Part shown: positions 26,111 through 32,648 of the stretch, piece after piece
Layout of the letters: every line of letters starts with the position of its first letter
Position numbering within the stretch: the first letter of the stretch is position 1
Source: Martinezella lusitana
Lineage (GTDB): Bacteria; Pseudomonadota; Alphaproteobacteria; Rhizobiales; Rhizobiaceae
Length of the DNA stretch: 64,000 nucleotides
NCBI RefSeq assembly: GCF_010668395.1
Contig: NZ_WUEY01000003.1
Span: 248,001 to 312,000 of the forward strand
Reading direction: 5' to 3'
Made by a program: the position numbers and the translations under genes
Notes under the pieces: model-generated
Told to the model about the DNA's origin: nothing
The model's database searches: none
What the model saw: the letters and a program-made list of their open reading frames with translations, nothing else

Positions 26111-27124
26111 CTATTGCGGATCGGCAGAAGCTGCGGCACCGGCATTGATCACGGCAACGGGTGCCGTCCTGCCGCGCACGCGGATTTCGATGCGGCGGCG
26201 TGCCTCGACGGCACCGCGCTGGCCGGACGTGATGGTATCGCCGGGCAGGATAAGCTGCGCGGCGGACATCGGCAGAATGGTGGCATCCTTCAGCTTGGGA
26301 TTGGCCTTGAGCACGTTGGCGACGGCAATGGCGCGGGCAAGGCCTAGCCCTGCATTGTCGGCGGGCAGCAGGGCCGATACCGGCAGCTTGCCGTCCATCG
26401 CGTTGATGATCGTGTCGTCGAGATTGGATTTTTCACGCGCCACCGGCTGCTCGTCCGTATGGCCGATCACCTCGACGATATTGGCGCCGTAGAGGCTGAG
26501 GTTGCTGGCGATTTCGTCTGTGATCGTCGTGCTGAGCAACTGGGCGAAGGTGCCGGTGAGCTCGGCGCTTCCCGACTGGAAATAGTTCTTCTTGGCATCG
26601 TCGAGATTGATGATGGGCGGCCAGTCGTGCGTGCCCTTCCCGCTCCCATTTTCGGCCAGCAGCTGGTTGATCTGGTCCGGCGCTGCCGTGAGCGGGATGC
26701 CATGCTCCTTCAGAGTGGCGGCAACCTTGGAAAGCGATTGCAGATCGGCCGCTGTCGCACCCTGATCGATGATGCTGTCGAGCGTCTCCTTCGCCAGCAC
26801 CAGCTCACGCCATTGCTTGTCCACCACGGCCTTGTCGGCTGCGGAAAGATCGCCGGAGACGACCTTCGATTGCAGCAACACGATCTCGACTGCCTGCTCG
26901 GCCCGCTTCTTCTCCAGCAATGCGACCTGCTGTTCGGCTTTCACAAGCTTGCGCTCGACCTCGTAGCGCCGGTTTCTTTCCGCCGAAATCATGGCGGCGG
27001 CCACGAGCAGCAGACAGAAGACCAGAAGCAGCATGGATTCGGCCATGGTCAGGCCAAGGATAAGGCCGCGATTGTAGCCCTTGTGCTCCAGCTTCGGCGC
27101 GCTGTCCGAGCCTCCCGCTACCAT
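26111..27124 (-). CDS. MotB/OmpA-like envelope protein, last gene of a four-gene membrane operon
   Basis: This protein of 337 residues has a single N-terminal transmembrane helix (about residues 19-45), a coiled coil (about 48-85) and a C-terminal OmpA-like domain (about 165-320). The domain motifs are VIGHTDEQP, NAGLGLARAIAVANVL and RRRIEIRV, expected to bind peptidoglycan. The TM begins GLTMAESMLLLVFCLLL, with Glu 29 where MotB and ZorB have the proton-binding Asp. Together with the upstream MotA/ExbB-like gene this suggests a stator pair. I choose ATG 27124; GTG 27133 is in frame. The start overlaps the previous gene. Confidence 0.75.
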   Translation of the reverse strand: MVAGGSDSAPKLEHKGYNRGLILGLTMAESMLLLVFCLLLVAAAMISAERNRRYEVERKLVKAEQQVALLEKKRAEQAVEIVLLQSKVVSGDLSAADKAVVDKQWRELVLAKETLDSIIDQGATAADLQSLSKVAATLKEHGIPLTAAPDQINQLLAENGSGKGTHDWPPIINLDDAKKNYFQSGSAELTGTFAQLLSTTITDEIASNLSLYGANIVEVIGHTDEQPVAREKSNLDDTIINAMDGKLPVSALLPADNAGLGLARAIAVANVLKANPKLKDATILPMSAAQLILPGDTITSGQRGAVEARRRIEIRVRGRTAPVAVINAGAAASADPQ

Positions 27125-28062
27125 AGATGCCACCAGTGTTTTCGCGGCACCGCTTCGTTTTCGGAGGCAGCATCGTCAGGTTCGGCCGCTGCGGATCTTG
27201 GCAAGGGCGCCTGCCCCATCGCTTCGGCCATGCGCCCGATCGCCACTTCGATATTGCGCAACGGCTGCAATTGCGCCTCCGACATCTCCTTGATGGCAGC
27301 GATCGCCGGCGCCAGCTCCGCCCGCACCAGATCCTCCGGCGAGCGGATCTCCTCCAGCTTCTTGCCGACATTTTCGACGGCGGCGCCGAAGGTTCCGATG
27401 ATCTCCGAAAGCTGCGATGTCGTCGCCGTCAGCTGGGCGGCTGCGTCGTTGATCGGGGTCACCGCCTGCCTCGCCAATGTCTCCAGGATCTTGTTGATCT
27501 CCTGGCCGTTGCGCTCGGCCTGATGCGCGATCTCCTCGAACCCCTCCGACAGCATCTGATTGCTGACACGCCGATAGTGAGAGAACTCGCGCGACGAGGA
27601 ATCCAGTTCCGTGCGCACGCGCCGCGTCATCTCGGCAAGTTCGTGGCGCACGCTGCGCTCGATGTCGATCGGGTCGCGCCGCATCTGGTTGAAGAGGATG
27701 CGCAGCGTCACCCCGGCAATGGTCGAGGTGACGGCGATGCCGAAATTGCGGACGATGGTCTCGATCGATGTTTCGCCGGCAAAGAGATAGAGCGATACGC
27801 CAAGGCTCGACAGGGTGAAGAGAAAACCCATGTAGTAGAGATTGTCGCCCGCCTGCTCGTTGTGCAGCCGGAATCCCGCGACCGCAAGCGACACGACGAA
27901 GTAGATCGCCATCAGCGCCAGCGGAACGCCGGTGACGACCGGCAGCGACCAGCCCAGGAGCTTCGACGACCAGATGAAGACCATGCCGCCGATGGTGATG
28001 GAGGCGAAAAGCACCATCGGCCCGTAATCCCGGAAGAGATATCTCGCGTCGGTGCCAGCCAT
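27118..28062 (-). CDS. four-TM membrane protein with helical tail, possible MotA/ExbB-like stator subunit
   Basis: This 314-residue protein has four predicted membrane helices (about 15-35, 43-63, 73-93, 104-124) followed by a long cytoplasmic helical tail (130-300) rich in Glu, Gln and Arg. The last helix, FGIAVTSTIAGVTLRILFN, has small and Ser/Thr residues in a pattern like the pore helix of MotA/ExbB/ZorA proteins; the similarity is weak and is inference. Its ATG overlaps the stop of the vWA-like gene (TGATG), with GGAGGGG upstream, so translation is coupled. The following OmpA-like gene overlaps its 3' end. Confidence 0.7.
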   Translation of the reverse strand: MAGTDARYLFRDYGPMVLFASITIGGMVFIWSSKLLGWSLPVVTGVPLALMAIYFVVSLAVAGFRLHNEQAGDNLYYMGFLFTLSSLGVSLYLFAGETSIETIVRNFGIAVTSTIAGVTLRILFNQMRRDPIDIERSVRHELAEMTRRVRTELDSSSREFSHYRRVSNQMLSEGFEEIAHQAERNGQEINKILETLARQAVTPINDAAAQLTATTSQLSEIIGTFGAAVENVGKKLEEIRSPEDLVRAELAPAIAAIKEMSEAQLQPLRNIEVAIGRMAEAMGQAPLPRSAAAEPDDAASENEAVPRKHWWHLW

Positions 28063-28880
28063 CAGCGTATCCCCTCCAACCGCACGAAGCCGTCGAAATA
28101 ACCGTTGTTGTTCTTGATCCACTGCGCCCAGAAGTTGGCGAGATCCTCCATGCCGAACTTCATGTTCGGCCTTTGGAAGGCGAGGATCCTGACCGTGACA
28201 CCATCCAGCGACGTGCGAAAGCGGTCGTTTGCCGGGCTCTGCTGATATTTCTTGTAGGAGACGCCATCCCGGTAGTTCGAGAAGGCGGCGGTATGCTCGA
28301 TCATATCGGAGGCGATGTAAAGGCGCTTTGGGATGCCGCCAGGCGCGCTGGCAAAGACCTCCAGATTGATCTTCTGGATGGCCGCCATGATCGGTGACAG
28401 CCTGCCGGATTCGCCGGCACTCAGCTTGCCGGCGATATCGGCAAGCGGCTTCTGGAAGCCCTTTTCCCATCGGGCCTGCGCCAGACGCGGATTGCTGGTC
28501 CATTCATCGACGTTGGCACCGCTTCCGGGATTGCAGCCGTGGAAGGTCTGGATCAGCTCGCCCTCCTTTTCGGTGAGCGCATAGATATCGACCGCGCCGC
28601 CGACCGGCACGTCCGCCACGATCTTCTGGAACTGGTTGCGCAGATCGAGCGCCGTCGTATCCGAGATCGGATCGGTGACGTCGAGCAGGATCGCCGTTTC
28701 CGCCTTCGCGCCGTCCACCGGGCAGAGCGATGCTTGGTCGACGGCGACATTGCCGTTCGCCTTGTAGCGCAGCCAGCCATAGGCGCCGACGATGCCAAGG
28801 GAGAGCACGGCGAGACACACCGTTGCGATGATGAGACCGGCGGAACCGCCGCGCCGGCTACGCCGCTTGCGTCGCGCCAA
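28062..28880 (-). CDS. membrane-anchored vWA-like protein
   Basis: This 272-residue protein starts with a very basic segment (MARRKRRSRRGG) and one transmembrane helix (about 13-36), so the rest is probably periplasmic. A strand followed by DVTDPIS (residues 67-73) resembles the MIDAS start of von Willebrand A domains (DxSxS), but the spacing is not canonical, so metal binding is uncertain. Later strands RLYIASDMIEHT and VTVRILAFQRP fit a vWA-type sheet. The start is TTG 28880 with GGAGAG upstream; it overlaps the previous gene by 23 bases. Confidence 0.65.
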   Translation of the reverse strand: MARRKRRSRRGGSAGLIIATVCLAVLSLGIVGAYGWLRYKANGNVAVDQASLCPVDGAKAETAILLDVTDPISDTTALDLRNQFQKIVADVPVGGAVDIYALTEKEGELIQTFHGCNPGSGANVDEWTSNPRLAQARWEKGFQKPLADIAGKLSAGESGRLSPIMAAIQKINLEVFASAPGGIPKRLYIASDMIEHTAAFSNYRDGVSYKKYQQSPANDRFRTSLDGVTVRILAFQRPNMKFGMEDLANFWAQWIKNNNGYFDGFVRLEGIR

Positions 28881-30306
28881 GGATGCTCTCCGGGAAAAGA
28901 TTGTCGAGCTGATGATATTTCTCGATAGCGCGCTCGAATTCGTCGCCGATCCGCTTAATCTGGTCCGACAATTCCGCCTGAGCGCTCTGGATGCGCGAGC
29001 CCAGCACCTTGTCGTCCCATTCCTCTTCGCTGCGAATGACCGGCGTCAGGCGCTCCATCCTGTAGGCGGTGTTGAAGTAGGATGGCGCAGGCTCCGTACG
29101 GGCGGCCCGGTCGGCGTCGCGGTAAGAGGTGAGCAGCACATTGGCCGCGCGCTCAAGATGGTTCTGGTGCTCGGCAAAAAGGCCCGCCGTTCTGGCCCGA
29201 TGAGCGATGATGGCCGCCGTTTCCTGTCGGCGCAGCGAGAGATCGCGGATGATTTCCTCGATCTTGCTGTTGTGCTCGTCGCGAATCTCGCGGAGATCAT
29301 CGATCAGATCGAGCTTGCGATCGATATAATTATCCCTGGCCGCATCGAGGCGCTTCTGCACGCCGGCAAAGCCAGGATAGGGGTCGGTCAGATAGCAGCC
29401 GTCGATGAAGGCGACGAGCGAGAACATCAGGCCGATGGCGAAGAGCATCCACGAATTCAATTCCTGAAGCCCGAGCGGAGCCGTCTTCAGACGCTGGATC
29501 ACCTCGGCGCCGGCCCCGCTCAAAATCGTCGCCGAAACCTCGCGATAATGCGCCAGCACAATGTTGATGCCCAATGCCACGGCGACATAGGCGACGAGCC
29601 CAAGCAGGCCGAGCAGCTTCAGCGTATAGGATCGATGCACCAGGAAGCGGACGCAAAAGAAGGAAAACATCAACGCCGCGCCGATGTTCAGGAAGGCAAA
29701 GGCGGCTGCTTCGGTCACGCCGCCGACGATGCCCTGCTCGCTGCCCTTGGCCAGAAAGCTGCCGTTCATCACCATTTCGACAAGGACGAGGAAGACGATG
29801 AGCGAAACCTTGAAGCCCCATGCCGCCTTGCTGGAGACCTTCGCGGCGCGCTGCAGCCTGTGCGTGGCCTTGAAACCCACCATCTCATCTTCGGCGGTTT
29901 TCAGCTTGCGGCGCAGGCCGTGCAGTTCGTCGACGCCGCTCGCCGCCTCAGCCTTGAAATCCGAGACGCTGGAGGCATTCGCCTGCCGGATCAGCCCGAA
30001 CTGGCCCTCGAAATCGAGGTTGCGCAGACGGCTGTCGAAGGTCTGGAACTGGTCCTCGAGGATCTGGTAGGAGCTTTTCTTTTCCGCCTCGACCCAGGCG
30101 ACGATGCGCTGCTCCGTCTCGTCATGCGACTGCGCATCCGGCGGCGGCCGGTTTTGCCGACCGGCGGCTGCTCCCTTCTCCTTCAGATCGAGGGTCGTGC
30201 CGAGTTTCTCGATATCGACGACAGGAAAAACGTCCGTCGAGGCACGGAAATCATGGCTGGTCTCCCGAACGCTGTTCCAGAGACGGTTGAGGGCTTCGAA
30301 ACGCAA
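28858..30306 (-). CDS. polytopic membrane protein with coiled coils, first gene of the four-gene operon
   Basis: This 482-residue protein has a charged N-terminal cytoplasmic region with predicted coiled coil (about 60-150), four membrane helices (about 163-181, 196-222, 229-252, 283-305) and a C-terminal helical domain (315-480) with repeated Arg/Glu. I do not recognise the family. It begins with TTG 30306 after GGGGAAGA. It is the first gene of a run of four overlapping genes, so it probably forms part of the same envelope complex. No enzyme motif is visible. Confidence 0.7.
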   Translation of the reverse strand: MRFEALNRLWNSVRETSHDFRASTDVFPVVDIEKLGTTLDLKEKGAAAGRQNRPPPDAQSHDETEQRIVAWVEAEKKSSYQILEDQFQTFDSRLRNLDFEGQFGLIRQANASSVSDFKAEAASGVDELHGLRRKLKTAEDEMVGFKATHRLQRAAKVSSKAAWGFKVSLIVFLVLVEMVMNGSFLAKGSEQGIVGGVTEAAAFAFLNIGAALMFSFFCVRFLVHRSYTLKLLGLLGLVAYVAVALGINIVLAHYREVSATILSGAGAEVIQRLKTAPLGLQELNSWMLFAIGLMFSLVAFIDGCYLTDPYPGFAGVQKRLDAARDNYIDRKLDLIDDLREIRDEHNSKIEEIIRDLSLRRQETAAIIAHRARTAGLFAEHQNHLERAANVLLTSYRDADRAARTEPAPSYFNTAYRMERLTPVIRSEEEWDDKVLGSRIQSAQAELSDQIKRIGDEFERAIEKYHQLDNLFPESILGATQAA

Positions 30307-30496: not shown

Positions 30497-32416
30497 CTAC
30501 ACCCCGACCGTGTTCGGGGTAATTTTCCAGAACCCCGCGCGGCGCAGCCCCTCGCTATAGATATCGCGCTGCCATTGTTCCTTGAACGGCATGACGGAAA
30601 CCCAGCGATCGACATCGAAACCGGGATTGGTTTGATGGATGCGCCGCACGAAGAAGCCGGCCCTTTCCTCTTCTCCGAGCATGGCCCAGCTCGCTGCGGA
30701 AACCCGGTCCGCCAGGCGGGAATCGGCCATCCGGCCGATATAATCCAGAGCGGTCTCGAAGCGGCCGAGCGTGTAGCTGGCCACGGAAGCGGTCCAAAGA
30801 TAGGTGTCGGGGCTGACCGGATTGAGCGCGATCGCACTTTCTATCTTCGTCAGCGCAAGCTCCGGCCGCGATGAATGGAGCAGCGCTTCGGCGTGGTCGG
30901 CAATGATGCCGGCGTGGCCCGGATTGAGCGCTTCGGCCAGTTGCAGCGCCTCGATGCTCTCGTCGTTTTCCCGCTGAAAGGTCCTCGTCATGCCGAACTC
31001 GCGATAGCCGTCGGCGATATCCCGCCGAGCTGCGATGGCCTGCATGGCGTAATTTTCCGCCTCGTCCAGCAGGGCCGCGTCGCTGCCCGAGGTCAGCACC
31101 CACTCCTTGGAATAGGTCCGGGCAATCGAACTCAAGGCAGGAGCGAAATGGCCGCTGCCCCGCAATGCCGCCTCCAGTTCCGACCGCGCTTTTCTCAGGT
31201 TCGGGATCGAGAGGCGATCCAGGTAGCGCCTGCCGGCGAGATAGCGATGATAGGCCGTCGGGTTTTCGGCGAAGTGGGACTTCATCATCTCCCGGCGCTC
31301 GATCTGCCCTGCAAGGGACAATACGATATGACGCGTGACCGTCTGCCTCTGCTCTTCGGACGGCGACTGCCCAAGGCTCGTGCGCTCTGCCCAGACGATT
31401 TCATCGCTGGCCGCCTCGACCAGTTGCAAGAACAGCAGCGGGCCGTCGTCCCGCACGCTGAGGCGCATCTCGAGAATGTAGGAGCGGTCCCATTGGTCGA
31501 ACGTCGCGGCGGCACCCTCGCCAACCTTGCCGATCCGGACCGCCGTGTTGCGGCCCGCAATGTCCAGGCTGTCCAGCGCGCAGAAGCCGATGGTGATATC
31601 GTTCACAAGGGACGAGGCATCATACCCTATATCTTGCCTCTCCGCGGATGGGAGTAGGAGTAGAGGTATCCGGACCCTCGCCCGCCCAGCCGACGCTCTT
31701 TCATGACGGAGATTGGCGCCTTCAGCCTGCGCCACCAAAATGTCCTCTTGCCGCAGCGACCATGAACCGAGCAGCTCGGCACGCTGCTCGAAGGTCTGCC
31801 TGAAATACGCCACCTCGCCCGCCGCATCGAATATCCGCAGCAGGATGTGATGAATATCCCGATCTTCCGGGTCGACACCCAGGACAAGAAGCGCCGCTTC
31901 CTTCACCAGCGCGACATCATCGTTTGCGGTCGCTTCCGCGGCGGCGGCTGTCAACGCTTTCTTCAGCACATCGACATGTCTGCGTCTTTGCGCCTCGCGC
32001 CAATGAACGAAAACCGCGCTTTGGCAATCGATCCCCTGCAGGAACTGCGCCTCGAGCGTTTTCGCCAGCAGTTTCAATCTCGCAAACATCGGCTCGGCCT
32101 GCTCCCCGCGGGCAAACCAAAGATCGGAGGTCGAGGGCGGCGTTTCGAGTTCGACGACGGTTTCGCTGAAACGAAGAAACGACCTGCCAAGCGCTTCCTG
32201 GCGGGCCCTTACGCGCGAAACCAGCTTGCGCAGATTGACTTTTGCGCTGCCATTGTCGTCTCCCCACAACAGCCGGGCGATCGCGCTGCGTGACGCGCGC
32301 GCCGTTGGCTCCAGCATCAGATAGACCAGGATCAACAGGCCCTTTTCCGGAAACGCAACCTCGCGACCGTCGCTGTCCAGAAGTTGCAGGCTGCCAAATG
32401 CATTCAGTGAAAACAT
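30497..32416 (-). CDS. SARP-like transcriptional regulator with C-terminal TPR region
   Basis: This protein of about 639 residues begins with a winged-helix domain of the OmpR/SARP type (about 1-90: FGSLQLLDSDGREVAFPEKG and the recognition region NLRKLVSRVRARQ), followed by a bacterial transcriptional-activation-like helical domain (about 95-230). A middle domain resembles those in adenylate-cyclase-like or SARP regulators, and the C-terminal part (about 410-600) has TPR-like repeats, for instance ALNPGHAGIIADHAEALLH. No membrane helix is seen. ATG 32416 precedes the wHTH; the frame is open to 32608. It is upstream of, and codirectional with, the four-gene membrane operon and may control it. 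Confidence 0.72.
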   Translation of the reverse strand: MFSLNAFGSLQLLDSDGREVAFPEKGLLILVYLMLEPTARASRSAIARLLWGDDNGSAKVNLRKLVSRVRARQEALGRSFLRFSETVVELETPPSTSDLWFARGEQAEPMFARLKLLAKTLEAQFLQGIDCQSAVFVHWREAQRRRHVDVLKKALTAAAAEATANDDVALVKEAALLVLGVDPEDRDIHHILLRIFDAAGEVAYFRQTFEQRAELLGSWSLRQEDILVAQAEGANLRHERASAGRARVRIPLLLLPSAERQDIGYDASSLVNDITIGFCALDSLDIAGRNTAVRIGKVGEGAAATFDQWDRSYILEMRLSVRDDGPLLFLQLVEAASDEIVWAERTSLGQSPSEEQRQTVTRHIVLSLAGQIERREMMKSHFAENPTAYHRYLAGRRYLDRLSIPNLRKARSELEAALRGSGHFAPALSSIARTYSKEWVLTSGSDAALLDEAENYAMQAIAARRDIADGYREFGMTRTFQRENDESIEALQLAEALNPGHAGIIADHAEALLHSSRPELALTKIESAIALNPVSPDTYLWTASVASYTLGRFETALDYIGRMADSRLADRVSAASWAMLGEEERAGFFVRRIHQTNPGFDVDRWVSVMPFKEQWQRDIYSEGLRRAGFWKITPNTVGV

Positions 32417-32648
32417 GATCCTGTTCACAAAATCCACGCGAGACCACGCTGGCGGAAAAACCTCTTCCTTTTTACCGGCGGCTCTCATTCGGGCTCGGAT
32501 GAGCGTGGTGAAATTCCCATAAGCCTGTAGTGTGTAGGAAGGTCCGGCGATTTTCAATTCCAATTGCCTCCAACCCGACAGCCCTTCGCCAAATCGAAAA
32601 CGCGACATATCTTTTCAAAACACGCGATCTCATTCGGAGCATCAAGCC

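What the first reader, a model, noticed from the sequence alone, without database searches (positions are those of the whole stretch)
26111..30306. Four-gene overlapping operon for a possible ion-driven, stator-like envelope complex
Four minus-strand genes overlap or touch: a polytopic coiled-coil protein, a TM-anchored vWA-like protein, a four-TM protein with a long helical tail, and a single-TM OmpA-domain protein. The last two resemble in layout the MotA/MotB, ExbB/ExbD and ZorA/ZorB pairs (multi-TM subunit with cytoplasmic tail plus single-TM peptidoglycan-binding subunit). The first two have no counterpart that I know in those systems. No nuclease or helicase gene (ZorC, ZorD or ZorE type) is near. 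The overlaps are direct observation; the motor idea is inference. It could be a chromosomal defence, envelope-sensing or peptidoglycan-related machine.
Basis: partly seen in the sequence, partly recalled or inferred. Interest (0 to 1): 0.78.

Follow-up and report, generated by a model that had tools for sequence, protein, structure and literature searches.

The report
Zorya-like motor with periplasmic nuclease partners
Four overlapping genes in a Rhizobium chromosome encode a membrane machine that looks like a relative of the ion-driven Zorya anti-phage motor with two extra parts of its own; many relatives carry a secreted DNA-cutting enzyme beside it or fused to it, which suggests an immune machine that attacks incoming DNA outside the cytoplasm.

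Summary
In detail: four overlapping minus-strand genes A-B-C-D (30306 to 26111), same order in relatives, under purifying selection. C is predicted as four TM helices plus a long helical tail; its top Foldseek hit is type II ZorA (prob 0.99, but E 0.24), with moderate profile similarity to ZorA. D has one TM with an invariant Glu and an OmpA/ZorB-like domain. B is a periplasmic vWA fold. A (four TM, coiled coils) matched nothing of note. New here: outside the window's clade the system is recurrently linked to a secreted nuclease. Of 37 clusters of ABCD loci, 23 have one within 6 kb or fused (two on weak hits), on either side and strand; 0 of 9 A-B-only loci do. In three divergent loci the nuclease is D's own C-terminal domain: SNase twice, HNH (GmrSD_C) once; in two of these D's periplasmic domain is ZorB-like at E about 1e-27. 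Best reading: a Zorya-related motor whose nuclease acts in the periplasm, probably against incoming phage or plasmid DNA. Defence is inferred, not shown. The window's copy has no adjacent nuclease (0 of 31 in its cluster) and sits among housekeeping genes.

The parts
28858..30306 (-). Gene A: 482 aa, coiled coil - four TM helices - coiled coil (topology inferred); no known family found
   Evidence: no Pfam/PADLOC/NCBIfam/PHROGs match of note; no PDB sequence match at E<=1. Its fold was not predicted
28062..28880 (-). Gene B: 272 aa, one N-terminal TM then a von Willebrand A (vWA) fold, taken as periplasmic; invariant Cys53 and Cys116, Asp67, Asp70, Ser191-Asp192
   Evidence: model pLDDT 81.9; Foldseek best E 5.4e-6, top rows mostly vWA-type; VIA best Z 13.3; conserved residues in 33 sequences
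27118..28062 (-). Gene C: 314 aa, four TM helices then a 108-residue tail helix; ZorA/ExbB/TolQ-like core; invariant Thr83, Ser86, Ser113, Thr114
   Evidence: (35 sequences)
26111..27133 (-). Gene D: 340 aa, one TM with invariant Glu32, coiled coil, OmpA/ZorB-like domain with invariant Asp227 and Arg267
   Evidence: Pfam OmpA 27.2 bits at cut-off 27.2; alignment of 34 sequences; profile match to ZorB P 2e-6

Best explanation
A-B-C-D is an inner-membrane, ion-driven machine related to the Zorya motor. C (probably a pentamer) and D (probably a dimer) form the channel and rotor-stator core: ions pass between the TM acid of D (Glu32) and a polar ring in C, D holds on to peptidoglycan through its OmpA/ZorB-like domain, and C turns or shifts with its long cytoplasmic tail. 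A and B are an add-on module, which also exists alone in other bacteria: A a four-helix membrane protein with coiled coils, B a vWA domain in the periplasm with two invariant Cys. In most clusters outside the window's own (23 of 36) the output arm is a secreted SNase-type nuclease, next to the operon or fused to the C-terminus of D, and once an HNH nuclease fused to D, so cutting would happen in the periplasm at the wall layer. The likeliest job is defence against DNA that crosses the envelope (phage or conjugative plasmid). Shown here: gene order, predicted folds of B and C, motifs, nuclease linkage, fusions, selection. Inferred: topology, stoichiometry, ion flow, sensing, defence. The window's copy keeps all four genes under selection but has no adjacent nuclease; its effector is elsewhere, different or lost.
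For: C: model of four TM helices plus a 108-residue tail helix; Foldseek top hit type II ZorA 8vvi_C, prob 0.99, target TM-score 0.72; VIA 95 residues at 2.4 A, Z 10.5. Profile of C's membrane part against five ZorA sequences: score 28.0, 60 column-shuffled controls at most 19.5. D: Glu32, Asp227 and Arg267 invariant in 34 of 34; profile match to ZorB P 2e-6. B: vWA. Nuclease link: 23 of 37 ABCD clusters, 0 of 9 A-B-only loci; by distinct A+D DNA, 39 of 96. Only 30 SNase matches in 11 whole genomes of about 69 Mb, so about 0.005 expected per 12 kb of flank (my arithmetic). Fusions: D+SNase in L199 and L209, D+GmrSD_C HNH in L208 (Pfam); the periplasmic domains of L208 and L209 hit PADLOC ZorB2 at 1.4e-27 and 3.9e-27. 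Catalytic Arg, Glu, Arg kept in 40 of 40 SNases; 35 of 36 stand-alone ones scored have a signal-like segment over my threshold, and the two fused ones scored do not. Some loci lie beside PADLOC-matching genes, integrases and resolvases (hand-picked, see Tried and rejected).
Against: No phage, plasmid or ion-flux data. The window's copy has no adjacent nuclease: 0 of 31 ABCD loci in its cluster, and 0 of 13 in the L133 cluster; 14 of 37 clusters have none. In 30 of 32 loci of its cluster (the other two are 4-5 kb contigs) the operon shares its locus with the same panE-like and ABC-F genes, so it is a fixed chromosomal feature there, not in a defence island. Foldseek's E-value for C is not significant (0.24) and designed helical bundles tie in Z. 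HHalign's probability for C against ZorA is only 29%; with a wider C alignment 41%, but the score margin shrinks to 29.8 against 26.9 for the best of 60 shuffles. TolQ, meant as a positive control, gave no meaningful match to C and only 1.6% to ZorA, so the method is insensitive here. The TM acid is Glu where the five ZorB sequences fetched have Asp. A nuclease also lies beside a lone shortened A without B-C-D (L042 and L128, one genome). Four of the nine A-B-only loci come from one genus. The PADLOC census of neighbours was hand-picked and its control weak.
Confidence: 0.6

Rival explanations
1. An envelope or peptidoglycan maintenance machine (Tol- or Ton-like) without an immune role; the nuclease scavenges or clears extracellular DNA.
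For: OmpA domain and ZorA/ExbB-like core; the window's cluster keeps ABCD at a fixed site, under purifying selection, without an adjacent nuclease; a PBP1A-family gene lies beside the operon in R. johnstonii 3841.
Against: Patchy: A in 24 of 397 order genomes, 10 of 337 class genomes and 43 of 100 genus genomes, own genome and A-B-only relatives included; also on plasmids, 11 of 20 records typed conjugative. The nuclease is fused to the OmpA subunit and exchanged between SNase and HNH, which suits an effector better than scavenging.
Confidence: 0.2
2. A plasmid-competition or entry-exclusion device that destroys incoming conjugative DNA, without effect on phages.
For: 11 of 20 plasmid records with a match are typed conjugative and 4 mobilizable; traA lies within about 12 kb in two of the seven records read; a periplasmic nuclease could reach DNA in transit.
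Against: The window's cluster carries it on large contigs among housekeeping genes. Zorya relatives act on phages (PMC11890865, abstract and passages). Not separable from phage defence with sequence alone.
Confidence: 0.15
3. Ordinary Zorya, only divergent.
For: ZorA-like model; ZorB-like D, strongest in L208 and L209.
Against: A and B have no counterpart in Zorya as I know it; no ZorC, ZorD or ZorE among the 10 window neighbours scanned at E<=1e-10; the partner nuclease is secreted; no significant PADLOC ZorA or ZorB match for the window's proteins (best ZorA E 0.02, in the tail).
Confidence: 0.05

Closest known systems
Zorya type I and II (ZorA/ZorB with ZorC-ZorD or ZorE)
   Same: ZorA-like membrane core with long helical tail; ZorB-like TM acid plus PG-binding-type domain; nuclease partner in many relatives; near other defence-gene matches in some loci
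   Different: two extra subunits (A; B with vWA); C has one more N-terminal TM helix than the 99-residue 8vvi_C chain it aligns to; Glu instead of Asp in the TM; nuclease secreted or fused to D on the periplasmic side, whereas PMC11890865 (passages) proposes recruitment of nucleases by the cytoplasmic part of ZorA
ExbB/ExbD, TolQ/TolR and MotA/MotB (PomA/PomB) ion-driven motors
   Same: multi-TM subunit beside a single-TM subunit with a periplasmic end; OmpA domain as in PomB (best PDB sequence match PomB, E 2e-4)
   Different: no PF01618 match for C; no TonB, TolA or flagellar partner noticed beside it; nuclease link
Secreted staphylococcal-nuclease family (PF00565) and GmrSD_C HNH (PF07510)
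   Same: domains present, with the catalytic Arg-Glu-Arg kept in the SNases
   Different: tied to a membrane motor operon and three times fused to its OmpA subunit

Membership tests
Zorya | ZorA-type subunit: MotA/ExbB core plus long cytoplasmic tail | tested here: inconclusive
   Foldseek prob 0.99 but E 0.24; VIA Z 10.5, tied with helical designs; profile score 28.0 (probability 29%) against shuffles of at most 19.5, 29.8 against 26.9 with a wider alignment
Zorya | ZorB-type subunit: one TM with an acidic residue plus PG-binding domain | tested here: met
   Glu32 invariant in 34 of 34 (Asp in the five ZorB sequences); OmpA 27.2 bits; profile against ZorB P 2e-6; relatives L208 and L209 PADLOC ZorB2 about 1e-27 in the periplasmic domain. 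Binding itself not tested
Zorya | effector ZorC-ZorD or ZorE in the locus | tested here: not met
   10 neighbouring window proteins: no Zor match at E<=1e-10. Relatives carry secreted SNase or fused SNase/HNH instead. An effector in trans was not tested
Zorya | 5:2 assembly, ion flow, anti-phage activity | not testable with these tools
   needs complex prediction, biochemistry and phage assays
vWA domain (gene B) | vWA fold | tested here: met
   Foldseek best E 5.4e-6, 78 chains at E<=0.001, top rows mostly vWA-type; VIA best Z 13.3
vWA domain (gene B) | canonical DxSxS metal site | tested here: not met
   Asp67-x-Thr/Ser-Asp70 in its place in most rows, with conserved Ser191-Asp192; the canonical motif is recalled
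MotA/TolQ/ExbB family PF01618 (gene C) | Pfam match | tested here: not met
   PF01618 not among the families listed for C at E<=1

The most novel reading that the evidence does not exclude
A separate class of motor-driven immunity in Alphaproteobacteria: a Zorya-related ion motor with two new subunits (A and periplasmic vWA protein B) that triggers or positions a nuclease in the periplasm (SNase, or HNH in one lineage), cutting phage or plasmid DNA before it reaches the cytoplasm. The tropici-clade copy in the window would be a version whose effector is unlinked or new.
Probability: 0.5. Interest if true: 0.88.

Novelty: new variant of a known kind. Interest (0 to 1): 0.78.

Why it matters
Zorya motors are proposed to sense an envelope event and to act through nucleases recruited on the cytoplasmic side (PMC11890865, passages). 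Here the nuclease is part of, or encoded beside, the OmpA/ZorB-like subunit and should act outside the inner membrane. That would be a different place of action for motor-driven immunity. The fused versions offer a single-chain system in which the coupling of motor and nuclease can be tested by point mutations. It would also give a function to a four-gene set whose marker gene A is in 43 of 100 sampled genomes of this genus.

Tried and rejected
Viral contigs: no relative of a 156-aa piece of C. Literature: searches on ZorA/ZorB/MotA/ExbB/OmpA/thermonuclease, thermonuclease + OmpA family protein + defense + Rhizobium (none), Zorya, SNase/periplasmic nuclease + phage + defence, vWA + ZorA + OmpA + anti-phage, thermonuclease + anti-phage + defense systems (none) and periplasmic/ZorB/nuclease domain listed no paper that, by title and start of abstract, describes this operon. 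Only two papers were opened, for passages (PMC11890865, PMC12505986). The library lacks most subscription papers, and PADLOC is of 2023, so a later description could be missed.

A as ZorA-like: profile scores at control level. TolQ as bridge to C: no match. PDB sequence matches of C (best 60 of 301 shown): mostly in the coiled-coil tail (apolipoprotein, spike), taken as compositional; ZorA 8qyd is among them at E 0.001, also in the tail. Two weak hits of C in the order search (E 6e-4 and 8e-4) are in the tail too and were not counted as relatives. Empty-site comparison: the ABC-F gene next to the operon is in 99 of 100 genus genomes, but in four ABC-F neighbourhoods without the operon (two of these genomes carry A elsewhere) the other neighbours differ, so no empty site could be defined. 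The upstream 703-aa regulator is not part of the system: it is found in 18 of 32 loci of the window's cluster and is absent between A and the panE-like gene in L255. A S. fredii gene pair with an OmpA domain near L130 did not match the profiles.

Weak points of my counts. The clusters come mostly from A-based searches, so loci without A are hardly sampled. The 108 ABCD loci hold repeats of the same DNA: 96 are distinct by A and D, 39 of them with a nuclease; cluster counts are not affected. Two of the 23 nuclease clusters rest on weak hits (L127 35 bits, L202 27 bits), and L043 and L077 (the same locus) hold only a remnant (24 bits). The neighbour census used 114 proteins: 112 picked by hand from the 295 (220 of which were printed), leaning to plasmid-like loci, plus the two Gabija genes of L132, which lay outside my flank rule and were added after I had seen the annotation. 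So the Gabija match in the census is not an independent finding. Of ten proteins then scanned one by one, five had no match. The control used 46 of 53, leaving out four ABC-F genes, two ABC-ATPase-like genes and one at an edge; ABC-F matches PADLOC by itself. 'Defence neighbourhood' is therefore suggestive only.
Full report
Check of the finding. I call them A (28858-30306), B (28062-28880), C (27118-28062) and D (26111-27133). The set is accessory. A is in 43 of 100 genomes of the genus, 24 of 397 of the order and 10 of 337 of the class; B is in 9 of 349 of the phylum, all nine within the class. Each tally includes the window's own genome, and the last three include A-B-only relatives. Of 20 plasmid records with a DNA match, 11 are typed conjugative. 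Within the window's clade the genes are under purifying selection (dN/dS 0.05-0.27). In 30 of 32 loci of the window's cluster the same panE-like and ABC-F genes are in the locus; the other two are 4-5 kb contigs (order checked in two).

What the proteins are. Pfam's one match at its cut-off is OmpA in D. PADLOC has no good match for any of the four (best E 8e-4, for C), and NCBIfam nothing above its cut-offs. C, modelled with 30 sequences (mean pLDDT 73.8, pTM 0.42), has helices 4-36, 40-61, 69-94 and 100-128 and a tail helix 131-238. Foldseek's first hit is type II ZorA (8vvi_C, prob 0.99, target TM-score 0.72, E 0.24). VIA gives ZorA Z 10.5 over 95 residues at 2.4 A, with ExbB 9.6 and TolQ 9.4, but designed helical proteins score as high. 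Profile alignment puts C's MGFLFTL...AVTSTIAG onto ZorA's LGILGTF...AFLTSLAG, score 28.0 (probability 29%) against at most 19.5 in 60 shuffles of C and 18.1 in 60 shuffles of ZorA; TolQ against ZorA, meant as a positive control, reached only 1.6%. With a wider C alignment the score is 29.8 and the best of 60 shuffles 26.9. In ZorAB a polar Ser/Thr ring of ZorA faces the ZorB Asp (PMC11890865, passages). In C, Thr83, Ser86, Ser113 and Thr114 are invariant in 35 of 35 sequences. In D, Glu32 in the TM is invariant in 34 of 34, as are Asp227 and Arg267 of the OmpA domain; that the latter two are the peptidoglycan-binding pair is recalled from work on OmpA. B is a vWA fold with two invariant Cys. 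A has no relative of note in the libraries searched.

Modules. A and B also occur without C and D: in nine loci fetched (L178, L179, L206, L207, L210, L247-L250) only A and B matched the profiles; four of the nine come from one genus. So A-B and C-D look like separable pieces that were put together.

The nuclease. In relatives outside the window's clade a secreted SNase-family gene recurs beside the operon. I clustered the A proteins of the fetched loci at 80% identity: of 37 clusters with at least one ABCD locus, 23 have a nuclease within 6 kb or fused to D in at least one member. By loci it is 46 of 108, or 39 of 96 when identical A and D DNA is counted once. It lies upstream or downstream, on the same or the opposite strand, so it is not one inherited neighbourhood. 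Eleven whole genomes of about 69 Mb hold only 30 SNase matches, which gives about 0.005 per 12 kb by chance (my arithmetic). In three divergent loci the nuclease is part of D: L199 and L209 (SNase, 50.4 and 51.0 bits) and L208 (GmrSD_C HNH, 44.2 bits). The periplasmic domain of D in L208 and L209 is ZorB-like by PADLOC (1.4e-27, 3.9e-27) and, for L209, by PDB sequence (8vvi_A, 9.4e-11); L199's is weaker (8e-5). Of 40 SNase sequences over 100 bits, all keep the Arg, Glu and Arg that correspond to the catalytic ones (assignment to Arg35, Glu43 and Arg87 of staphylococcal nuclease is recalled). Of 36 stand-alone SNases scored, 35 have a hydrophobic segment above my threshold before the domain and the other is just below; the two fused ones scored have none, as D's own TM would carry them out. 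A shortened A without B-C-D also has the SNase beside it (L042 and L128, one genome).

Context. Some loci are beside genes that match PADLOC models: both Gabija genes in L132, a GmrSD/HEC-06-like gene in L041, a DpdF-like helicase in L131, a MkoA-like helicase in L115; five of the ten proteins scanned in that call had no match. Matches to HerA, PD-Lambda-1 and CBASS parts were not mapped to loci. Integrases (4) and resolvases (3) occur among the 114 neighbours. This census was hand-picked, the Gabija genes were added after seeing their annotation, and the control was weak (see Tried and rejected).

The window itself. No nuclease is adjacent in its cluster (0 of 31 ABCD loci). The genome's one SNase match is on another contig and scores 135.6 bits with the S profile; I could not tell whether it belongs to the system. 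The 10 neighbours scanned in PADLOC gave only matches of the ABC-F protein and a protease-like protein to models that share those domains.

Conclusion. What it works like: an ion-driven motor of the Zorya type, likely for the C-D pair. Whether it is Zorya: not as tested, since the expected effectors were not found in the locus and A and B are extra. What it does: probably periplasmic restriction of incoming DNA in lineages that carry the nuclease (inferred); in the window's lineage the machine is kept and its output is unknown.

Noticed in passing
L130:1186-3307: In S. fredii pSfreNXT3b, an exported protein with a vWA-like look (my reading of the sequence) is followed by an exported OmpA-domain protein, about 9 kb from the ABCD operon; it did not match the ABCD profiles.
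   Followed up: partly
L041:13458-14207, L044:12115-12879, L131:16402-17157, L119:8938-9687, L091:9204-9800, L121:10205-10837: A small membrane-anchored protein with a Cys-rich C-terminus recurs beside ABCD in several lineages, on either side; in L041 it has an SH3 domain and its tail matches phrog_27544. Possibly a further component.
   Followed up: partly
L202:12532-13569, L203:12485-13396, L204:12454-13611: In these D homologues the TM with its Glu is kept but the OmpA region looks replaced by another periplasmic domain with a PSCW or PPCW-type motif (L203 has no OmpA match).
   Followed up: no
L206:5960-7699: An A-B-only locus lies beside a caspase plus FGE-sulfatase fusion protein (Pfam).
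   Followed up: no
window 30497-32608: Regulator-like 703-aa protein next to A, with a weak Trans_reg_C match; the search counts stop codons inside many matched stretches in other genomes, which I did not check; it is missing at this place in L255.
   Followed up: partly
L093:14599-15813 and L095, L096, L105, L109: DUF4236-type proteins (Pfam match shown for L093) recur beside ABCD in four Mesorhizobium loci and one Sinorhizobium locus.
   Followed up: no
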